A DNA stretch of 64,000 nucleotides from Nitrospira sp. (GTDB lineage: Bacteria > Nitrospirota > Nitrospiria > Nitrospirales > Nitrospiraceae), in the NCBI GenBank assembly GCA_005116955.1, contig SWDI01000003.1, positions 62,001-126,000 on the forward strand. The letters run 5' to 3'. Positions 22,712 to 32,683 of the stretch are shown one piece after another. The notes under the pieces are model-generated. The model was not told the DNA's origin. It ran no database searches and was given only the letters and a program-made list of their open reading frames with translations. Numbering within the stretch: the first letter of the stretch is position 1; each line of letters begins with the position of its first letter. The position numbers and the translations under genes are program-made.

Positions 22712-25327
22712 ATGCCTGCCTTTGTAAGGGTCTTACTCCTTCTTCTTACCGCGCATGTCCGGCAATGGCCGTTACGCACGCTGCTGACAATCGTCGGCGT
22801 GGCGCTCGGCGTGTCGGCCTCCGTTGCCGTGCGGACTGCCAACGTCGACGTGCTGAGGTCCTTTGAAGAGGCGGTCCTGACGGTGGCTGGTCCCACGACC
22901 TTGGAAGTGTCAGGAGGGGAGACCGGGCTTGATGAACAGGTCATTAGGCAGGTCAGAACCATCGCCGGCGTAACGTCTGCATCGCCGGTGATTCTACAGA
23001 CGGCCGTTCGCATGAGAGGAGAGCACGTCGATCAAGCGGTGCAAGTGGTGGGGCTGGATCTTCTGGCCGAATTCAATACACGCGGGTTCCGCATGAGCCA
23101 GCCGTCAACGGAACAGCAGTTGATGGGGATGATCGAGCCACAGGCGGTGTTCTTGGGAGCCCAATTGGCCACAGAGTGGAACCTGTCGGTCGATGAGCAG
23201 GTTGATCTTCTCCTTGGATCCAGGCGTCTCACCTGCCGGGTTGCAGGGATTCTTCAAAATGGGCCGGACCGACCTTCATCATGGGAACGCATGGCCGTGA
23301 TGGATATCGCTGCGGCACAAATTACGTTCGGGATGGTTGGGAAGTTGGATCGAATCGATATCGTGACCGACGAACACAAGATCGTCGATGAGATCGCACA
23401 GGACCTACGGGCTGTTCTGCCTCCCTATTTGACGGTGGAACGGCCAGCCAACAGGACGAGGCAGGTTGAGCAAATGGTGCGCGCCTTCCGTCTCAATCTG
23501 ACGGTGTTGAGCTGGGTTGGCCTGTTAGTTGGGATGTTCCTGATCTACAACACGATGGCATTCGCCGTCGCCCAGAGGAGACGAGAAATCGGAATCTATC
23601 GAGCCATTGGGATGACTCAGTCTCGGGTGGCAGTATTGTTTTTGACGGAAGCCGGGTTCTTTGGATTGTTGGGAGGAATCGCCGGAAGTACAACCGGAAT
23701 GGTGCTCGCGCAAGAGCTGGTGGCCTTGCTCAGTCAAACGATTTCGGATCTCTATGCTCCAGTCGGGGCCGGCGAAGGAGGGCTATTCCAGAGCGGCCAA
23801 TTCTGGAGCATGATGCTCGAAGGCATTATGATTGGGTGCGTCATGTCCATGATTGGTGCCGTTGGTCCAAGCCTGGATGCCAGCCGCACCGCGACGGTAC
23901 GAGCGTTGTCTCCTGGTGACTATGAAGCGAGCCAGCAGCTACGAGTGGGGATGCTCGCCATCATGGGACTGAGCTTGCTCGCCGTTGCGGGGCTCTTGAG
24001 TCTGCCAGGCCCCATCAATGGGGTTCCTGTCATGGGGTACGCGGCGACGCTCTGTCTGCTGGCCGGTCTTGCGTGTCTGGCGCCGATCTGTGTCACTGGA
24101 TGGCGGCGTCCGCGACAATATGTGGGACGTGCAGGGGGAGCAGGGGGAGTTATGAGGGGGATTGCCGTGGAGCATGCCTCGCGCAGTCCAGGCCGAAACG
24201 GAGTGACCGTCTCTGCCTTGATGGTGGGATTAGCAATCATGATCGGCGTGCTGGTGATGGTGCGAAGTTTTCGACATACGGTCGAACTCTGGGTCACCGA
24301 TACGGTCTTGGCCGATCTGGTCGTGGCACCCTCACTGTGGCTGCGGGGCACGGAGATCGGGGGCGCCGGCCGGAGTCTCCCGCCAACATGGTTGACCGTC
24401 TTGTCTTCCATCCCTGAAGTAGCCGCAGTCGATAGTTATCGCGATGTCCGAGTGGAGGTGAATGGCCAACGGGTGGCTATCGTCTCACGAGATTTACGAT
24501 TACATGCCCAATGGAGCCGGTATCTTGTCCGCCAGGGCGATTCTTCAGAACAGCTCATACGGGCAGCCGATACCCGTGGGCTCCTCGTCTCTGAGGTATT
24601 GGCCAATCGGCTCGGGGTGGAGGAAGGATCAACGCTTGAAGTTCTGACGCCGAGCGGCCTCGCGCGATTCCCGATCGTGGCCGTGTTTTATGACTATTCG
24701 ACGGACGGGGGGAAGCTGCTCATGGATCGGGCGCTGTACCAGTCGCTCTGGCATGATGATCTGGTCACGGTGTTCCCCGTGTACATGAACGCTGGGTCAA
24801 GTATTGATCGTGTGAGAGAACGGATCCTAGAACAACTGAGCGGCGCAGCCGGCGGAGGGCTTCCGCCGCTTGTGATCAGCAACACGGAGTTACGGATAGA
24901 AATTCTCGACATTTTCGATCGTACATTTCTGCTGACCTACGTGTTGGAGGCCATCGCGATCGTGATTGCCATGCTGGGGATCGTCAATACACTGGTCACG
25001 TCTGTCCTTGAACGTCGCCGGGAATTTGCGACGCTACGGGCCATCGGTGGCAGTGCGGAACAAATTCAACAGCTCGTGTTATGGGAGGCGGCCTACCTCG
25101 GCGTAGTGGGGATTGCCTTGGGCCTTGTTGGTGGCGGGCTACTGTCGCTGTTGCTGATTAAGGTCATCAATAAGCAATCATTCGGTTGGACGATTCAGAT
25201 GATTGTTCCGATCGGCGCACTGGCCCAGGCCGTGACGCTCGCGGCGGTTGCCACCTTGGTGGCGGGCTACTTCCCGGCCCGCTGGGCGGCACGACAACCG
25301 GTGGTGGAAGGGCTTCGGGAAGAATAA
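22712..25327 (+). CDS. Large FtsX-domain ABC transporter permease
   Basis: An 871-residue inner-membrane protein with two FtsX-type halves, as in YbbP/AttF-like permeases: an N-terminal helix (RTLLTIVGVALGVSASVAV), a periplasmic MacB_PCD-like core, a first helix bundle with AQRRREIGIYRAIGMT (about 290), a second core, and a C-terminal bundle with VLERRREFATLRAIGGS (about 770). The duplicated REIG/REFA motif before an Ala-Ile-Gly turn is typical. Substrate unknown; relatives move lipids, lipoproteins or signal peptides. The matching ATPase is at 20663-21361. Confidence 0.9.
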   Translation: MPAFVRVLLLLLTAHVRQWPLRTLLTIVGVALGVSASVAVRTANVDVLRSFEEAVLTVAGPTTLEVSGGETGLDEQVIRQVRTIAGVTSASPVILQTAVRMRGEHVDQAVQVVGLDLLAEFNTRGFRMSQPSTEQQLMGMIEPQAVFLGAQLATEWNLSVDEQVDLLLGSRRLTCRVAGILQNGPDRPSSWERMAVMDIAAAQITFGMVGKLDRIDIVTDEHKIVDEIAQDLRAVLPPYLTVERPANRTRQVEQMVRAFRLNLTVLSWVGLLVGMFLIYNTMAFAVAQRRREIGIYRAIGMTQSRVAVLFLTEAGFFGLLGGIAGSTTGMVLAQELVALLSQTISDLYAPVGAGEGGLFQSGQFWSMMLEGIMIGCVMSMIGAVGPSLDASRTATVRALSPGDYEASQQLRVGMLAIMGLSLLAVAGLLSLPGPINGVPVMGYAATLCLLAGLACLAPICVTGWRRPRQYVGRAGGAGGVMRGIAVEHASRSPGRNGVTVSALMVGLAIMIGVLVMVRSFRHTVELWVTDTVLADLVVAPSLWLRGTEIGGAGRSLPPTWLTVLSSIPEVAAVDSYRDVRVEVNGQRVAIVSRDLRLHAQWSRYLVRQGDSSEQLIRAADTRGLLVSEVLANRLGVEEGSTLEVLTPSGLARFPIVAVFYDYSTDGGKLLMDRALYQSLWHDDLVTVFPVYMNAGSSIDRVRERILEQLSGAAGGGLPPLVISNTELRIEILDIFDRTFLLTYVLEAIAIVIAMLGIVNTLVTSVLERRREFATLRAIGGSAEQIQQLVLWEAAYLGVVGIALGLVGGGLLSLLLIKVINKQSFGWTIQMIVPIGALAQAVTLAAVATLVAGYFPARWAARQPVVEGLREE

Positions 25328-25364: not shown

Positions 25365-25724
25365 TCACGCCCTGGAGCCCCGTCCGTACTTGTCGAGCAA
25401 CCGTTGAAGGTCTTCCGGAATGGGCATGGACTGAAACGGAGGGACGCGAGCCCCGCCAGTATTGCCTATCGGCACCCACATTCGTGAAAACAGCAGAGCT
25501 CCCAGGATCCGAGGCAGCTGACCGGAAATTTCTACAAAATCTCGCCGCCTCCAACCAACCTTCAGCATCCACCAGTGAGATCTGGTATGCGCAATTGGAA
25601 ACGATTGTCCCAGGATGTGTGCCCGCTCAAGATGTGAAAATGCGAGTTGCAGATCGCCAGCATCATACTGACCGACTGCTGCCGTCATTTCGGCATCATA
25701 GGCTCGTCGAAGCTCAGGGTGCAT
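25365..25724 (-). CDS. DUF3703 family protein
   Basis: A 119-residue protein whose whole length fits the DUF3703 family: MHPELRRAYDAEMTAA, then LAFSHLERAHILGQSF, HTRSHWWMLKVGWRRRDFVE, LLFSRMWVPIGNTGGARV and MPIPEDLQRLLDKYG. Function unknown; I recall family members near metal-resistance genes, but no such gene is present here. It is convergent to the permease gene, 37 bases from its end, and its 5' end opens onto an AT-rich gap (25.77-25.99 kb) where the accessory island begins. Confidence 0.85.
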   Translation of the reverse strand: MHPELRRAYDAEMTAAVGQYDAGDLQLAFSHLERAHILGQSFPIAHTRSHWWMLKVGWRRRDFVEISGQLPRILGALLFSRMWVPIGNTGGARVPPFQSMPIPEDLQRLLDKYGRGSRA

Positions 25725-25989
25725 ATTGTCGTTCCAAAGCGGATGTAACCGCTGTCACTGTACCTTAGGAATGGACGAGAAACCAGGATGCCAACAGACT
25801 GAAGGATGAGAAATTTCAACTCTCGATCGGCAATAAGAATTGAATCTTGTCCCACCTGTCACCGTATCCGGCGAGTGCATTTCTGCTAGAAACTTTTTGC
25901 ATTGCGAATTCTATGGCAAATTAGAGCTTAGTTTCTCTCTGACCAACTAAACCATAAAGTATTACTTAGCATAAGAAGCGAATTATCAC

Positions 25990-26574
25990 ATGGCGGGAAG
26001 ATCGGTGTACATGAGTTTGGGTTTATCTCAACGCTTCGAACATGCCCTGACCTTTACCGCACGGCTTCATGCCACCCAAACAAGGAAAGGGACGGAAATC
26101 CCTTATATCGCCCATCTGTTGGCAGTGGCGAGTCTCGTCCTCACGCATGGTGGCGACGAAGATGAAGCAATTGCGGGGTTGCTCCACGATGCCGTAGAAG
26201 ATCAGGGTGGGCGGCACACACTGGAGATAATCCGAGCACGGTTCGGTGAGCGAATCGCCGCCATCGTCGATGGTTGCATGGATACGGACATTACGCCGAA
26301 ACCGCCATGGCGAGAACGAAAGGTGCGATACCTCCATCATCTCAAGGCAGCATCACCATCCGTTAAACTCGTCGCTGCGGCAGACAAACTCGATAACGTG
26401 CGCTCCATCTTGGCTGACCATCGGACGCTTGGCCCATCGATTTGGACCCGGTTCAATGCCGGCAAGGCTGATCAGCAATGGTTTTATCGTGGATGTGTGA
26501 CCGCGCTAGTGGATGGGAAACAGTCCATCATTCGTGAGTTGGATGTTGCTGTTGAAGAGCTGGAGCGACTGTAA
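25990..26574 (+). CDS. RelA/SpoT-type HD hydrolase, stand-alone
   Basis: A 194-residue protein consisting of an HD domain of the RelA/SpoT N-terminal type: HATQTRKGTEIPYIAHLL, the metal motif LLHDAVEDQGG, and the late Asp in AAADKLDNVRSI. No synthetase, TGS or ACT domain follows. Such stand-alone domains (MESH1/SAH-like) can hydrolyse (p)ppGpp or related nucleotides; the substrate here is an inference from fold only. An alternative start is at 26011. First gene of the accessory island; the next ORF begins 32 bases after its stop. Confidence 0.82.
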   Translation: MAGRSVYMSLGLSQRFEHALTFTARLHATQTRKGTEIPYIAHLLAVASLVLTHGGDEDEAIAGLLHDAVEDQGGRHTLEIIRARFGERIAAIVDGCMDTDITPKPPWRERKVRYLHHLKAASPSVKLVAAADKLDNVRSILADHRTLGPSIWTRFNAGKADQQWFYRGCVTALVDGKQSIIRELDVAVEELERL

Positions 26575-26606
26575 CTGCAGCGCATACGGATATGTAGAGT
26601 CTAGAA

Positions 26607-27899
26607 TTGAGAAACCTCTTCGATCAATATTCTCAGCCGGAGAATCGGCTCACACACGCGTTGCTGGCGTCGCTGGCTGAGGATCGCTGGTTGCTTGATG
26701 CATTCGTTCGTTGGGCATTCGGCATGCACGTGAAGAAGGAGAGGCTCTCGGTTTTGGAGCAGTCTTTTCCCGGGGAACCATTGGATCTTTCTGAAGAGGA
26801 GGCTCAACGGCGAGGTTTGCCGGATGGCTGCATTACCGATGGCAACAACTGGGCTCTCCTGATCGAATGCAAAGTAGCCTTGTGGCCTACGCTTGATCAG
26901 CTGCATAGGCATATGCGGACGGCACGACGGCGGGGGATCGAGGATGTGCACCTATTGCTCTTGACGGTTCATCCAGCTCCGCCTCGCTTACCGGACAACA
27001 TGGTTGCTAAACAGTGGTGGGAAGTCTATGCCTGGTTGTCCAAACACAGTCCTCGATCCGCCTGGGCCAAGCGCTGTTTGGAGTACATGCAAGTGGCGGA
27101 AGCCAAAGAGGCAGCCGCTGAGTATTTACAAGAAGGGAGATTGACTGTGTTCTCGGGAATTCCCTTTGGGAAGCATGAGCCCTACACCTATGGCCAGGCG
27201 AAACGATTGCTGAAGTTGTTGCGGGAGGAGCTGTGCAAGGACTCGCGATTGTCCATTCGAATTGCAGCTGACCTGTCCGCACCGGGACGTTCTGCAATCA
27301 CCGGCCAGAACGATTCTGGTGTCTGGGACTACATTCCAATCCGACAAGCTCATCGAGCACAGAAGCATACGGAGTATCCGCACCTCACGCTGGTGATCAG
27401 CCGGGACCGCGTCGGAGCATTTGTGACTGTCCCTAATGGAATGACTTCCACCCAGCGAGCCCAGGTGTTTGGAGCAGACATGGATGGGTTCGAATCAGTT
27501 ATTCAGGGGGCGACGATCCAGATGGTGCAATCTCTACGAAAAGTAAGAGGTTTCGTGCCGGAGATCATCGTGCTCCAGCGCCACTGGCCAAGCCGAAGGG
27601 CCCCAAGCGTGGTGGATTGTCTGTTACGGCTCGATGTTAGGACGGCACTGCCGACGACCAGTCGATATCGAGGGCCGGTAAAGAGTCAACCACAGTGGCT
27701 GAAGGCAGCTTATGAGGCCCTCACTCATCGCCAATCGAACCTGGAGTTTCAAATCGGCTGCTCGTTCCCTTATGAGAAGTGTCCGACGGTGTCCGATCCC
27801 GCTCTCGTCCAGGCGATCGCAGATGTCTGGCTGGCCTGTGCCTCAATCATCAAAAGATCGATGGGCCATCGGGTGCGGCCTCGCCGCCGCAAGGGCTGA
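26607..27899 (+). CDS. PD-(D/E)XK nuclease-like protein A
   Basis: A 430-residue protein of no named family that I recognise. The N-terminal part carries a plausible PD-(D/E)XK core: PENRLTHALLASLAEDRW, then LPDGCITDGNNWALLIECKV, where PD and E-x-K have normal spacing. The region after about residue 180 has no recognised domain and ends in a basic tail (RVRPRRRKG). Start is a TTG; the core begins only about 12 residues later, so a downstream start is unlikely. Closely follows the HD hydrolase gene. A nuclease role, perhaps in DNA defence, is inferred from the motif only. Confidence 0.7.
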   Translation: MRNLFDQYSQPENRLTHALLASLAEDRWLLDAFVRWAFGMHVKKERLSVLEQSFPGEPLDLSEEEAQRRGLPDGCITDGNNWALLIECKVALWPTLDQLHRHMRTARRRGIEDVHLLLLTVHPAPPRLPDNMVAKQWWEVYAWLSKHSPRSAWAKRCLEYMQVAEAKEAAAEYLQEGRLTVFSGIPFGKHEPYTYGQAKRLLKLLREELCKDSRLSIRIAADLSAPGRSAITGQNDSGVWDYIPIRQAHRAQKHTEYPHLTLVISRDRVGAFVTVPNGMTSTQRAQVFGADMDGFESVIQGATIQMVQSLRKVRGFVPEIIVLQRHWPSRRAPSVVDCLLRLDVRTALPTTSRYRGPVKSQPQWLKAAYEALTHRQSNLEFQIGCSFPYEKCPTVSDPALVQAIADVWLACASIIKRSMGHRVRPRRRKG

Positions 27900-28073
27900 G
27901 CTTCCTCCTCGATTCTTCTGCGATCAATCCTCGAGACAGAACGCGATTCCGCGAATTACCTCTTTAACGTTGGGTGATCTTTCTACTCAGGAAAGCGTAT
28001 TTGTCTTGGTCGTTGGCCCTAATGCTTATTAAATAGAGTCGTCAGATTTAGGGAATATTGGAGGAATCACAAA

Positions 28074-29237
28074 ATGCCCGCTGCAAAAGTGTCCAGCAAC
28101 GCCGGGATGTTTGTGGTTCACAAAGATGGGCGTCTCATTGAGATGGTCGAACAACCTTACGATTCCGAGAAGCTCCTGCAGGCCCTTCTCAGTCAATATC
28201 CGAGCCTCCTAGCAGGCAATCAGATCGATCCTGAAGCCCCAAGGCGATGGCTGCTCGTGTCACGAGAGTATGGAGTGCCGGATGGTGTAAACGGCAGTGA
28301 TCGGTGGGCGCTGGACCATCTCTTCCTTGATCAAGAGGGTATTCCAACGCTTGTCGAGGTCAAAAGAAGCAGTGATACTCGTATCCGTCGAGAGGTCGTC
28401 GGGCAAATGCTCGATTATGCCTCCAACGCGGTGTTGCATTGGCCAATCGAGTCCATTAGGGCCACGTTTGAAGCTCGATGCGAGTCCGAGGGCAAGGATT
28501 CCGATGAGCTCGTAGAAGACTTAGTGGGGCAGCGTCTGTCCGTGGACGAATTCTGGGACATGGCGAGAACGAATCTCCGGCAAGGGAAAATCCGCCTCCT
28601 GTTTGTTGCCGACGTGATTCCGCAGGAGCTGCGACGAATCATTGAATTTCTGAATGGGCAAATGACTCCTGCCGAAGTGTTGGCGGTCGAGATCCGGCAG
28701 TTCGTCGGCGAAGGGCTCCAAACGCTCGTGCCACGGGTCATGGGGCAGACCATGGAAGGGGAACAGAAGAAGATCAAATCCAGTCCTTCGCGGATCTGGG
28801 ATGTGGATTCGTTTATGGCCGAACTCAGAACACAATGTGGAGAGGAAATCGCCAGGCTGGCTGGATCCATTTATGACTGGTCGCTTGAGGAATTCGGCCA
28901 TGTACGGTTCAGCGGAACAACTCGAGCACGCTTCGGGCCGACGTTCGGCAAAGATGCATCAGATGTACGCGTCTTTGTGATTAGAGTTGATGGCCAACTT
29001 GTATTTCGATTCCCGGATTGGCGGTCGCAGTCGTGGATCAAGGATCGAGCGTTTCTTAATGGGTTTCGCGAACGATTGAATAAGATTCCTGGACTGAATA
29101 TTAGCGAAGAAGATCTCGACCATAAGCCAATCAGACCACTGAACCTCTTGCTCAGCTCGACAAATTTCGACTTATTCAAGCAGGCCGTCACCTGGTTGAA
29201 GGACGCAGTACACTTGGTGGGCAAACGGTCAGAATAA
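28074..29237 (+). CDS. PD-(D/E)XK nuclease-like protein B
   Basis: A 387-residue hypothetical protein. The segment ALDHLFLDQEGIPTLVEVKR (about 82-101) followed by EVVGQMLDYASN has the D...E-x-K...Q-x-x-x-Y pattern seen in NucS/RecB-like PD-(D/E)XK enzymes. The C-terminal half has no recognised domain; it contains an FGPTFGKDASDVRVFVIRVD segment that looks like a structured beta region. Preceded by GGAGGAATCACAAA before the ATG. Separated from protein A by 174 bases with no gene. Function unproven. Confidence 0.72.
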   Translation: MPAAKVSSNAGMFVVHKDGRLIEMVEQPYDSEKLLQALLSQYPSLLAGNQIDPEAPRRWLLVSREYGVPDGVNGSDRWALDHLFLDQEGIPTLVEVKRSSDTRIRREVVGQMLDYASNAVLHWPIESIRATFEARCESEGKDSDELVEDLVGQRLSVDEFWDMARTNLRQGKIRLLFVADVIPQELRRIIEFLNGQMTPAEVLAVEIRQFVGEGLQTLVPRVMGQTMEGEQKKIKSSPSRIWDVDSFMAELRTQCGEEIARLAGSIYDWSLEEFGHVRFSGTTRARFGPTFGKDASDVRVFVIRVDGQLVFRFPDWRSQSWIKDRAFLNGFRERLNKIPGLNISEEDLDHKPIRPLNLLLSSTNFDLFKQAVTWLKDAVHLVGKRSE

Positions 29238-29364
29238 CAGTCTGGGCGTATTTCTTTATGGCGTGGAGTCGTTGACCGGCTGTGTGATGCCTGCTACGGA
29301 GGCGGGGCAATTGGCCAAAGGATCAATGTGTTAACCGTTGGACAGATGAGTAGGATCACGAAAG

Positions 29365-29740
29365 GTGGTCCTGAAGATACCTCCCACGTTGACGACATGG
29401 GAGGCGTTACAGTTCCGTGCCACGATTGAGTGTGAAATCGAAGAGATGAGGCGGGATGGCATTGCACCTGACATTCCCTATGATTTTGATGATGAGGATC
29501 GACTGGAAGAACCGAGCCACGTGAGCCTGATGGTTCTCGACCAGTCATGGTCGAGGGACCTTCGACCTTGGCCAAGATCCTTCCAGAACTGACCGTCGAG
29601 GAAGCATGTGGTTGGCCCGCATGGTCCAGGCGTACGGAGAAACACAGGTACTCTCCCTGTGGCCCTCCTATGAGGTCCAGATTAACTTCGCAAGAGGGGT
29701 CTCTTCAGCGGACTCTCCCCGACAGGAACAGATGAGTTAG
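29365..29740 (+). pseudogene. Frameshifted ORF in the nuclease island
   Basis: Three short open stretches in different frames appear to be parts of one former gene. Frame 1 from GTG 29365 reads LTTWEALQFRATIECEIEEM and on to HVSLMVLDQS. Frame 3 from 29547 reads MVEGPSTLAKILPELTVEEA. Frame 2 from about 29612 reads LARMVQAYGETQVLSLWPSY and runs to TAG at 29738. Joining them needs two single-base changes. No family is recognised. It could also be chance open frames in a non-coding gap. Confidence 0.35.
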
Positions 29741-29780
29741 GGCGCGAGGCTCGCGAGGGAGGCGAAGCCATGAGGGAGTC

Positions 29781-30203
29781 TTGGCAACTATAAGCCCTGG
29801 GAAAAAAGCACAGCGGACAGCCCGTTGGGCAAGGATCATGACCAAATGGCTTGTCACCTTCAGCCATCGCGACGGAGCGAGGTGGCAGGTCGTGAATTTT
29901 AACGGTCCTCAGGGATTTGAGTCGGCGGGCATTGTAGATTTGCTCGCGATTCGAAAAGATCACCGATCCAATAAGCCAGGTCTGAAACGGGGTGATTTCT
30001 TTGAGATTGTGCTAATCCAGGTCAAGGGTGGGTTTGCCGCTCGACCCAGCTCGCAGGATGTTGTGCGTCTTGCACAGGTTGCCAAGCACTACCATCCCAA
30101 GGTGGTTGTGCTTGCCGAGTGGCAACGGAAGCAGACACTTGCTCTCTTCAAGCTCGACAAGTTGCAATGGAAGCCGGTGGATCCGTCCATTGTCTTTAGC
30201 TAA
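29781..30203 (+). CDS. PD-(D/E)XK-fold-like protein C with QXK motif
   Basis: A 140-residue protein. The segment ESAGIVDLLAIRKDH supplies the Asp, and EIVLIQVKGG supplies a Q-x-K in place of D/E-x-K, followed by RPSSQDVVRLAQVAKHY. I recall related small proteins in other bacteria with the same VDL..IRK and Q-x-KGG layout, so the Gln is probably a family feature. TTG 29781 follows GAGGGAG; ATG 29838 is a possible later start. No partner domain. Catalytic activity is uncertain because the acidic residue is replaced. Confidence 0.65.
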   Translation: MATISPGKKAQRTARWARIMTKWLVTFSHRDGARWQVVNFNGPQGFESAGIVDLLAIRKDHRSNKPGLKRGDFFEIVLIQVKGGFAARPSSQDVVRLAQVAKHYHPKVVVLAEWQRKQTLALFKLDKLQWKPVDPSIVFS

Positions 30204-30391
30204 TAGGAGGGATGGTTCCGGGGTTGACGAATGTCACGATGATATGCCCCAGCTGGTGTGCTCTCCGATTACTTCTATCCCTATGACCTTCCCTGTCACA
30301 CTCTGCTGGTATCTTTATCTCTAGCAGGCCAAGATTCCTACGAGCGTTGAAGGGGGCGACTCAAACGCCATGGATAGGCAGTGAGGACCAC

Positions 30392-31015
30392 ATGGCTCTA
30401 GAAGGTAAGGCTCTTTCGGCACATGTCCCAACGGTTCGTAAGACCGGTGACGAGTGTTTCACGGTTGGTGATGAAACCTTGCCGGTCGATCTTCTCAGTT
30501 TCTGGCAGTGGTCCACGTCGGACCTCCTTGGAAACACGATGCGCGGCTGCCTGGCCGAATACATCGTAGCCATGGCATTGGGGATTACTTCTGAGGTTCG
30601 AAATGACTGGGAAGCCTACGACCTAAAATTCAAGGATTGGAAAATAGAGGTGAAAGCTTCTGGCTATCTGCAGTCGTGGCCACAAAAGCGACTTTCTCGT
30701 CCCGTCTTCAGCATCCGACGGGCGCGGAGTTGGGATCCCGTCACAGGTCGAATGACTGATGAGGCGTACAGACAATCGGACCTATACGTGTTCTGCCTCC
30801 ACCATCACAAAGATAAGGCGACCGTAAATCCCCTGGATTTGGCTCAATGGACGTACTATATCCTCCCGACCGCGTGTCTTGATCGCACTCCACGATTCAA
30901 GGATGCGAGTTCCATAAGCTTGAGCGCTCTTACCACACTGAATCCATCCACAGTATCATTCAATGATCTCGGCCAATCCGTTAAAGACATGATGAGCCGA
31001 GCAAGGATCGCATGA
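30392..31015 (+). CDS. PD-(D/E)XK nuclease-like protein D
   Basis: A 207-residue protein. NTMRGCLAEYIVAMALG is followed by WEAYDLKFKDWKIEVKASG and YLQSW, a typical Asp...E-x-K nuclease core, then YVFCLHHHKD and QWTYYILPT. I recall this arrangement in hypothetical proteins of many bacteria. The frame is open from a TTG at 30347, but ATG 30392 follows GAGGA and is preferred. Its stop overlaps the start of the next gene (ATGA), coupling it to a secreted protein. Confidence 0.72.
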   Translation: MALEGKALSAHVPTVRKTGDECFTVGDETLPVDLLSFWQWSTSDLLGNTMRGCLAEYIVAMALGITSEVRNDWEAYDLKFKDWKIEVKASGYLQSWPQKRLSRPVFSIRRARSWDPVTGRMTDEAYRQSDLYVFCLHHHKDKATVNPLDLAQWTYYILPTACLDRTPRFKDASSISLSALTTLNPSTVSFNDLGQSVKDMMSRARIA

Positions 31016-31407
31016 GGCTTCAATCATCCATGGTTCGTATCATCGCGGGGCTGATTGTCTTTTGCTTCATGGCGCCAGGTAACTGGCTTTGTGGCGTCGG
31101 GATTGCACAGGCTCAAGTGCGAGGTGGATCGCCGTCGGCTCCGCCTAAGCCGCAGTCCAAGAAACCGCTCGATCCGATGAATCGCCCCATGGACGAGTTG
31201 GGCGTGACCGGAAAAGACGACACGCTCTGCAGCGACCGCTGGTATTCCTGCACGAGCTATGACCGTCAGCAGTTCGACCAAAAGTATCCCGGCCAGCCGC
31301 TCAAAGATCTGCTCCGCTACGGCGAACCAGACTGGCCGGATAAGCCATGCGAGAGGCAAGACTGGAATAATTCCCTCGACTACCATGACAAGATGGACAA
31401 AGACTAA
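31012..31407 (+). CDS. Small secreted protein of unknown function
   Basis: A 131-residue protein with a signal peptide (IIAGLIVFCFMAPGNWLCG, cleavage probably after AQA near residue 34). The mature part is Pro/Lys-rich, then has Asp- and Tyr-rich segments with three Cys (TLCSDRWYSCTSYD, KPCERQDW). No family recognised. The overlap with the nuclease-like gene upstream is odd, since that product is expected in the cytoplasm. Confidence 0.7.
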   Translation: MRLQSSMVRIIAGLIVFCFMAPGNWLCGVGIAQAQVRGGSPSAPPKPQSKKPLDPMNRPMDELGVTGKDDTLCSDRWYSCTSYDRQQFDQKYPGQPLKDLLRYGEPDWPDKPCERQDWNNSLDYHDKMDKD

Positions 31408-31609
31408 AATTCTCGCCCTCAGCCAGTGACCTTTCGCACACTCTCCCGTTACGTTCGATGTCAATCTGACTGGGGCAATGATGATACACCGATGAAAATG
31501 GGCGGTACAAAAAAATTGCCTTGAAGGAGGAGAAAGTCGAAGGTCTGTATCCGCTCGCGTCAGGCACGACACATCGATAAAGAGCGAGCGGGTCACACGA
31601 AGTGCGGTT

Positions 31610-31685
31610 TGGTGGCGGTGGGCCGGATTGAACGGCCGACCCGCGGCTTATGAGTCCGCTGCTCTGCCAACTGAGCTACACCGCC
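31610..31685 (-). tRNA. tRNA-Met (CAU)
   Basis: Read on the minus strand this folds as a full tRNA with encoded CCA: acceptor GGCGGTG/CACCGCC, D-arm GCTC/GAGC, anticodon loop CTCATAA giving CAU, a five-base variable loop, and T-arm GGCCG/CGGCC with loop TTCAATC. The elongator-type acceptor pairing argues against initiator tRNA. The lowest base pair of the anticodon stem is an A-G mismatch (stem GCGGA/GCCGC), which is unusual. The 3' end points towards the accessory island at lower coordinates. Confidence 0.93.
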
Positions 31686-31819
31686 ACGTTGAAGAGTGCA
31701 GATGATAGCCGAAGACGACGGTCACTGTCCACCGACTGGACATGGCATAGCCGTGCCATGTCTGGATGAAGTTGTTCAAAACCTGCTATGGTTTTAAGGG
31801 GCCGTTTGAGAGGATGAAG

Positions 31820-32683
31820 ATGTCGATCGGAGACAATCGTGCGGTGGTCATCACGGGGGCTTCCACCGGAATTGGAGCGGCCTGTGCGCTTCACCTGGAC
31901 CAGTTAGGGTTCGTGGTATTTGCAGGGGTACGAAAACCGGAAGACGGCGTAGCCCTTCAAAAATCAAGTTCTGATCGGCTGGTGCCGGTGGAACTCGATG
32001 TGACGGATCTCATAACTATTCGAAAGTCTCACGCAGTCGTTTTGCAAGCGACGAGAGATCGTGGACTCTTTGGCCTTATTAACAATGCCGGGATTGCGGT
32101 CGTAGCGCCACTTGAAGCCGTGCCGATCGCCGACCTCCGCCAGCAGCTTGAAGTGAATGTCGTCGGGCAGGTGGCCGTGACTCAGGTGTTTCTGCCGCTG
32201 ATTCGCCAGGCACGGGGGCGCATCGTCAACATGGGCTCTATCGCAGGACTCTCAACGATGCCGCTGATGGGCCCCTATTCGGCTTCGAAGTTCGCACTGG
32301 AAGCCATTACAGACGCCTTGCGCCTCGAAGTCCAACAATGGGGGATTCATGTCTCGATTATCCAGCCGGGTGCGATCACGACGCCTATTTGGAATAAGTC
32401 GGCGATTGAGGCAGCTGAGCGAGAGGCTGCCATCGAGACGGAGCTTCGAACCCTCTATAAGCCTGTTGTGGCTGCGGTGAGGAAGGTCGTGGGAGAAGCT
32501 TCAAAGCGAGCGATCGCGCCTGATGCGGTCGCAAGAGTGGTTGAAGAAGCCCTGACCGCTCCGACTCCGAAAACGCGGTATCTTGTTGGGACTGATGCCA
32601 AGCTCCGCGCGCTGATGGTGAAACTGCTTCCTGATCGGATCTCAGATCGAATGCTTACCTGGATTTTGAAGCTTCCCCACTGA
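31820..32683 (+). CDS. Short-chain dehydrogenase/reductase family protein
   Basis: NAD(P)-dependent oxidoreductase of the classical SDR family. The dinucleotide loop is VVITGASTGIG, the structural motif NNAGIA, the catalytic Ser lies in NMGSIAGLS and the Tyr/Lys pair in YSASKFALE. The C-terminal part resembles retinol-dehydrogenase-like SDRs (VVEEALTAPTPKTRYLVG). The frame is open from 31766, but ATG 31820 lies 6 bases after GAGAGG and gives 287 residues. Substrate unknown. It stands alone between the tRNA and an outer-membrane-like gene. Confidence 0.88.
   Translation: MSIGDNRAVVITGASTGIGAACALHLDQLGFVVFAGVRKPEDGVALQKSSSDRLVPVELDVTDLITIRKSHAVVLQATRDRGLFGLINNAGIAVVAPLEAVPIADLRQQLEVNVVGQVAVTQVFLPLIRQARGRIVNMGSIAGLSTMPLMGPYSASKFALEAITDALRLEVQQWGIHVSIIQPGAITTPIWNKSAIEAAEREAAIETELRTLYKPVVAAVRKVVGEASKRAIAPDAVARVVEEALTAPTPKTRYLVGTDAKLRALMVKLLPDRISDRMLTWILKLPH

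What the first reader, a model, noticed from the sequence alone, without database searches (positions are those of the whole stretch)
25990..31685. Cluster of four different PD-(D/E)XK-like proteins with an alarmone-type HD hydrolase beside a tRNA-Met 3' end
Within 5 kb there are four unrelated-looking ORFs with nuclease-type D...E/Q-x-K cores, plus a stand-alone RelA/SpoT-type HD domain, a frameshifted ORF and a secreted protein. The tRNA-Met 3' end faces the cluster, the classical target geometry for integrating islands. I saw no integrase and no repeat of the tRNA 3' end at the other boundary. This could be a defence island or an unrecognised multi-gene nuclease system. That the genes act together is inference from proximity.
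Basis: partly seen in the sequence, partly recalled or inferred. Interest (0 to 1): 0.7.

Follow-up and report, generated by a model that had tools for sequence, protein, structure and literature searches.

The report
Defence-gene hotspot with four nuclease genes
A stretch of chromosome beside a tRNA gene, which in related bacteria is either empty or filled with different anti-virus systems, here carries four unrelated DNA-cutting-type genes that most likely act separately; it is a good but ordinary example of a bacterial defence hotspot.

Summary
The genes and the tRNA geometry are real. Two of the four proteins have a PD-(D/E)XK nuclease fold by predicted structure: N2 (28074-29237; NucS/EndoMS nuclease domain, Z 11.7) and N4 (30347-31015; BisI-family NhoI/Eco15I and I-Ssp6803I, Z 9.4-9.9). 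N1 and N3 carry only conserved PD...ExK or D...QxK motifs; their folds were not tested. The HD protein is a RelH-type small alarmone hydrolase.

The "multi-gene nuclease system" fails. Among about 79 same-genus genomes each gene occurs in few others, in different ones and at other loci; the four families are mutually unrelated.

The interval between the DUF3703 gene and tRNA-Met varies from 0.13 to about 14 kb in the genus. Other species hold a complete Azaca system, Type I and Type III restriction-modification, or a GmrSD-type protein there; some are empty. One has a broken tyrosine integrase ending in the tRNA gene. In the window the insertion lies outside the tRNA and its hairpin trailer, without a tRNA-end repeat.

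Best account: a genus-wide defence hotspot whose occupant here is an assembly of independent single-gene nucleases. New member of a known kind.

The parts
22712..25327 (+). FtsX/MacB-type permease, conserved left-flank gene of the hotspot (outside the variable part)
   Evidence: Same order in G019, G013, G012, G047, G018, G007, G080, G016, G051, G060, G003, G004
25365..25724 (-). DUF3703 protein, left anchor of the hotspot
   Evidence: PF12487 1.6e-40; adjacent to the variable interval in relatives
25806..31520 (.). Variable interval (about 5.7 kb). Flank homology with empty or near-empty sites ends at 25787-25805 on the left and starts at 31521-31528 on the right (from 31606-31609 where the trailer is diverged or lost)
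   Evidence: blastn against L062, L063, L072, L073 and L066
25990..26574 (+). HD: small alarmone hydrolase of RelH type (HDAVED motif intact)
   Evidence: PF13328 3e-23; 7QOE 4.6e-57; same position in G018 (80%) and, truncated, in G047; dN 0.13, dS 0.82 against G018
26607..27899 (+). N1: 430 aa, TTG start; N-terminal PD...E-x-K motif (D73, E87, K89), long C-terminal part of unknown fold; no Pfam, NCBIfam or PADLOC family
   Evidence: homologues G079 72%, G307 66%, G100 40%; relic of its first codons in G018; dN 0.18, dS 1.5
28074..29237 (+). N2: 387 aa, PADLOC candidate family PDC-S11; nuclease domain about residues 31-210 (invariant D81, E95, K97) plus a variable C-terminal domain
   Evidence: (5.9e-11), model, VIA Z 11.7 to 2VLD
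29365..29735 (+). Broken gene (frame-disrupted relative of an intact ~130-aa protein in G007)
29781..30203 (+). N3: 140 aa (TTG start; homologues have a longer N-terminus), D53...Q80-x-K82 invariant in 3 sequences
   Evidence: viral relative L128
30347..31015 (+). N4: 222 aa restriction-endonuclease-fold protein (E71, D92, E101, K103 invariant in 21 sequences)
   Evidence: model (pLDDT 88.7, pTM 0.81); Foldseek NhoI 2.5e-4; VIA Z 9.4-9.9
31012..31407 (+). Secreted-type 131-aa protein of unknown function; start overlaps the N4 stop by 4 bases
   Evidence: broken copy at the same side of the hotspot in G018
31521..31609 (-). tRNA trailer with hairpin; shared with empty site G013 and with G047, so it belongs to the site and not to the insert
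   Evidence: same element 3' of other tRNA genes in relatives
31610..31685 (-). tRNA-Met (CAT), right anchor of the hotspot
   Evidence: present at the right edge of the interval in relatives
31766..32683 (+). SDR-family dehydrogenase, conserved right-flank gene

Best explanation
The locus is a genus-wide integration hotspot for anti-phage genes, anchored by an FtsX/DUF3703 pair on the left and tRNA-Met plus an SDR gene on the right. In this genome it holds a small alarmone hydrolase and four unrelated PD-(D/E)XK-type proteins collected at different times, each most likely acting alone as a single-gene nuclease against foreign DNA. No cognate methyltransferase lies beside them, so they would have to tell self from foreign without one. 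For N4, cutting modified DNA in the manner of Type IIM/IV enzymes is the most likely way, from its fold neighbours. For N2, a stand-alone nuclease of the PDC-S11/Shedu style is the most likely. Shown: hotspot structure, turnover, absence of co-conservation, folds of N2 and N4. Inferred: nuclease activity, antiviral role, independent action.
For: The interval between DUF3703 and tRNA-Met is about 0.13 kb (G019), 0.19 (G013), 0.84 (G093), 0.97 (G012), 1.5 (G060), 1.8 (G003), 5.9 (window), 6.5 (G004), 7.4 (G047), 8.4 (G007), 12.3 (G016), 12.5 (G080) and 14 kb (G051). Occupants: complete ZacABC/Azaca in G047 (1e-81 to 1e-259), a GmrSD_N protein in G018, Type I R-M plus an OLD/Gabija-like ATPase in G080, a Type III MTase in G016, Type III R-M plus a DrmD-like helicase in G051, HsdR, IS and integrase remnants in G004. 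Turnover is visible: in G018 about 20 codons of N1 remain before the GmrSD gene; in G047 HD is cut at residue 131 by the Azaca insert; G003 keeps a 92% identical relic of the G051 helicase. N1 to N4 occur singly elsewhere, and N2 sometimes beside BREX or R-M genes. N2 and N4 folds. Purifying selection on HD and N1.
Against: No activity or phage data exist. N1 and N3 folds were not tested. Only N2 matches a defence-gene library (PADLOC PDC-S11, itself only a candidate family). The HD protein has no demonstrated defence link. N4 and the secreted ORF overlap by 4 bases, so some genes may be co-transcribed.
Confidence: 0.8

Rival explanations
1. N1 to N4 with the HD hydrolase form one multi-component nuclease/alarmone defence system.
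For: Same strand, 5 kb, short gaps (HD-N1 32 bp); HD with the N1 start also occurs in G018.
Against: Outside the window's genome, N1 is in 1, N3 in 0 and N4 in 2 of about 78 same-genus genomes and N2 in 1 of 38 relatives; no two of them share a genome. G018 has HD and an N2 relative, but at distant places on a contig. None of the 13 loci holding an N2 relative has N1, N3 or N4. A broken gene separates N2 from N3.
Confidence: 0.05
2. The cluster is the decayed remains of one integrative element that entered by site-specific recombination at tRNA-Met, with defence genes as its cargo.
For: tRNA 3' end faces the cluster; a tyrosine-integrase fragment ends within tRNA-Met in G004; tRNA-Met lacks its 3' half in G018; N4 relatives sit in phages, in one beside a large serine recombinase.
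Against: No integrase, no att repeat, trailer between tRNA and insert intact, genes of mixed distribution.
Confidence: 0.25
3. The ORFs are passively accumulated foreign genes without a defence role.
For: A broken gene and an orphan secreted ORF lie among them; N1 and N3 are in no defence library.
Against: Low dN/dS for HD and N1, intact catalytic motifs, defence genes as occupants in most filled sites.
Confidence: 0.12

Closest known systems
Core-gene-flanked defence hotspots (E. coli, PMC10121019; Pseudomonas aeruginosa, PMC10250203)
   Same: Conserved flanking genes, empty sites in some genomes, exchangeable known defence systems in others
   Different: Different host group; a tRNA-Met/DUF3703 pair as anchors; most of this occupant is made of uncatalogued nucleases. 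I saw the titles and abstract openings only and did not compare in detail
PADLOC PDC-S11 candidate family (N2)
   Same: Profile match 5.9e-11 over residues 20-243; the G018 relative matches it at 2.5e-104
   Different: Weak match; a candidate family with no tested function known to me
NucS/EndoMS mismatch endonuclease (N2 nuclease domain)
   Same: Z 11.7, rmsd 2.2 over 108 residues
   Different: In N2 the nuclease domain is N-terminal (31-210) with a different C-terminal domain; in 2VLD the match is the C-terminal part (126-233)
BisI family (NhoI, Eco15I) modification-dependent restriction enzymes (N4)
   Same: Foldseek 2.5e-4, probability 1.0; Z 9.4-9.6; E, D and K catalytic positions
   Different: N4 has E-x-K where BisI enzymes have Q-x-K (PMC11347163); no sequence-level match; I-Ssp6803I scores equally
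RelH-type small alarmone hydrolases (Leptospira levettii 7QOE; MixSpo family, PMC10434055)
   Same: E 4.6e-57 over residues 12-170, HD and ED motifs kept
   Different: Sits in a variable defence hotspot; no functional test

Membership tests
Defence island / hotspot | Variable interval between conserved flanking genes, with empty sites in relatives | tested here: met
   Interval 0.13-14 kb between DUF3703 and tRNA-Met
Defence island / hotspot | Occupants in relatives include known defence systems | tested here: met
   Azaca, GmrSD, Type I and Type III R-M, DrmD-like
tRNA-integrated genomic island | Integrase and direct repeat of the tRNA 3' end | tested here: not met
   None in the window; integrase fragment only in G004
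PD-(D/E)XK superfamily (N2) | Restriction-endonuclease fold with conserved catalytic D, E, K | tested here: met
PD-(D/E)XK superfamily (N4) | Restriction-endonuclease fold with conserved catalytic D, E, K | tested here: met
PD-(D/E)XK superfamily (N1) | Restriction-endonuclease fold with conserved catalytic residues | tested here: inconclusive
PD-(D/E)XK superfamily (N3) | Restriction-endonuclease fold with conserved catalytic residues | tested here: inconclusive
   D...QxK conserved in 3 sequences; no family match; fold not predicted
BisI family (N4) | Q-x-K catalytic motif | tested here: not met
   E101-V-K103, E invariant in 21 sequences against QVK/QIK in NhoI/Eco15I
BisI family (N4) | Cleavage of multiply methylated GCNGC | not testable with these tools
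   Needs an enzyme assay
Shedu (SduA, DUF4263) for N2 | Match to SduA/DUF4263 profile | tested here: not met
   No SduA hit for N2 at E<=1; fold similarity only, Z 7.8-8.0
Small alarmone hydrolase | About 180-210 aa with HD-domain motifs incl. HD...ED, no synthetase domain | tested here: met
   194 aa, HDAVED
Small alarmone hydrolase | Hydrolysis of (p)ppGpp or (p)ppApp | not testable with these tools
   Needs an enzyme assay

The most novel reading that the evidence does not exclude
N1 (430 aa, PD...E-x-K domain plus a large C-terminal part, no Pfam, NCBIfam or PADLOC family) is an undescribed single-gene defence nuclease, and N3 and N4 are further undescribed single-gene restriction families, so that this one hotspot occupant holds three new stand-alone antiviral enzymes.
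Probability: 0.3. Interest if true: 0.55.

Novelty: new member of a known kind. Interest (0 to 1): 0.38.

Why it matters
It gives an addressable defence hotspot in a genus where I found no such site described (limited literature search). Reading the same interval in more strains should yield further defence systems, and it singles out three compact, uncatalogued nuclease families (N1, N3, N4) for direct single-gene phage tests.

Tried and rejected
Multi-gene system: rejected on distribution. tRNA-end direct repeat: none. Sequence search of solved structures with profiles of N1 to N4: nothing relevant (weak ribosomal-protein hits to N3 are chance). Viral contigs for N1 and N2 and plasmids/phages for N1: no relatives. 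Pfam for N1, N3: no family. PHROGs for the N4 family: none. G019 as the ancestral empty site was reconsidered: it lacks the tRNA trailer kept by G013, G047 and the window, so it is probably a secondary deletion; G013 is the better empty site. The 6-phosphogluconate-dehydrogenase rows in the N2 structural list were treated as common-arrangement noise. GC content of the interval (52-55%) differs little from the flanks (53-59%) and was not used as evidence.

Full report
What is there. Between a DUF3703 gene (25365-25724, minus) and tRNA-Met (31610-31685, minus) lie, all on the plus strand, HD (25990-26574), N1 (26607-27899), N2 (28074-29237), a broken gene (about 29365-29735), N3 (29781-30203), N4 (30347-31015) and a 131-aa secreted-type ORF (31012-31407). 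The flanks are an FtsX-type permease (22712-25327) and an SDR dehydrogenase (31766-32683); both names rest on sequence resemblance, not on a family search.

The four 'nucleases'. N2 was modelled with an alignment of 12 sequences (pLDDT 80). Its N-terminal domain aligns to the NucS/EndoMS nuclease domain with Z 11.7, rmsd 2.2 over 108 residues, and at Z 6-8 to SduA, HamA, McrC, Card1 and several restriction enzymes; D81, E95 and K97 are invariant. It is a weak member of PADLOC's candidate family PDC-S11. N4 was modelled with 20 viral relatives (pLDDT 88.7, pTM 0.81); the best solved relatives are the BisI-family enzymes NhoI and Eco15I (Foldseek 2.5e-4; Z 9.1-9.6), with the homing enzyme I-Ssp6803I tied (Z 9.9). 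E71, D92, E101 and K103 are invariant in all 21. BisI enzymes use QxK (PMC11347163), so N4 is a fold neighbour and not a proven member. N1 has a literal PD...ExK motif (D73, E87, K89), conserved in the sequences that cover it; N3 has an invariant D53 and QVK. Profile comparison finds no relation among the four families.

HD. The 194-aa HD protein keeps the HD...ED motif and matches the Leptospira levettii alarmone hydrolase 7QOE at 4.6e-57, a member of the RelH/MixSpo group according to PMC10434055. It is under purifying selection (dN 0.13, dS 0.82 against G018).

Not one system. Among about 79 genomes of the genus, N1 has one other occurrence (G079), N3 none and N4 two (G051 and G093, at one shared but different site); N2 was searched in 38 relatives and has one (G018). 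HD has close relatives in G018, G083, G082 and G047. Across the phylum N1 and N3 appear again in only a few genomes. The 13 N2 loci from other phyla carry none of N1, N3, N4, but several lie beside defence genes: BrxL of BREX next to an N2 relative on a Sinorhizobium plasmid, a Type I restriction subunit in Geothrix and a Type III methyltransferase in a Bipolaricaulota genome. N4 relatives are found on plasmids, in 37 viral contigs and in a Faecalibacterium phage beside a large serine recombinase.

A hotspot. In relatives the order FtsX-DUF3703-[interval]-tRNA-Met-SDR is kept while the interval changes from about 0.13 to 14 kb. G013 and G019 are empty. G047 has a complete Azaca (ZacABC) system. 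G018 has a GmrSD-type protein. G080 has Type I restriction-modification with an OLD/Gabija-like ATPase, G016 a Type III methyltransferase, G051 Type III restriction-modification with a DrmD-like helicase. G007 has a WD40-repeat protein whose N-terminus looks like a TIR domain by eye (WD40; no PADLOC match). G004 has remnants of HsdR, a transposase and a tyrosine integrase. That ZacABC stands for Azaca is from memory of the defence literature; the tool output gives only the Zac names.

Turnover in action. In G018 the region up to and including about the first 20 codons of N1 is retained, followed by the GmrSD gene, so N1 once stood there. In G047 the Azaca genes start within HD, which is cut after residue 131. 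G003 keeps a 92% identical scrap of the helicase found whole in G051. This is replacement of cargo at one site, and it explains the mixed content of the window.

Role of the tRNA. A tyrosine-integrase fragment in G004 ends inside tRNA-Met, so at least one element probably used this target. In the window, however, the 89-bp hairpin trailer of the tRNA (31521-31609) is shared with empty site G013 and with G047. The present insert therefore does not abut the tRNA, and no repeat of the tRNA end exists at the other boundary. Later exchange by homologous recombination between flanks is the simplest account; this is inference.

How it most likely works. Each nuclease would recognise and cut invading DNA alone. 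With no methyltransferase beside them, N4 would best be explained as a modification-dependent enzyme, and N2 as a stand-alone nuclease. These are inferences from fold and setting. HD may only be a passenger that trims alarmone levels.

Verdict. Two of four nuclease assignments shown by predicted fold, two open; defence hotspot well supported; joint action not supported. Ordinary kind, useful instance.

Noticed in passing
window 31521-31609 (minus strand): A hairpin next to the tRNA-Met 3' end (-23.9 kcal/mol, z -2.0) recurs directly 3' of tRNA-Ser, -Lys, -Pro and -Ile genes in relatives; perhaps a shared tRNA terminator or processing element.
   Followed up: partly
L142 13727-14083: C-terminal fragment of a tyrosine integrase (PF00589, 1e-11) whose ORF ends inside tRNA-Met in G004.
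   Followed up: yes
L134 10122-13469: 1115-aa WD40-repeat protein in the hotspot of G007, N-terminus TIR-like by eye; the same interval holds a tRNA-Ile. No PADLOC match.
   Followed up: no
L137 16731-18017: Two DUF3703 copies beside the cargo of G051, suggesting a duplication at the left boundary.
   Followed up: no
L074 8845-8888: In G018 the tRNA-Met copy beside the SDR gene lacks its 3' half, and the two hotspot flanks lie on different contigs.
   Followed up: partly
L067 5683-7086 and L068 8698-10079: HD relatives in G083 and G082 are followed by what looks by eye like an N-formylglutamate amidohydrolase gene; in G082 a cytosine methyltransferase lies nearby.
   Followed up: no
L065 10995-12110: G018 PDC-S11 protein shares N2's C-terminal half (49%) but has a diverged nuclease half, which suggests domain exchange within PDC-S11.
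   Followed up: partly
L125 3296-4549: An N4-like domain at the C-terminus of a 417-aa viral-contig protein.
   Followed up: no
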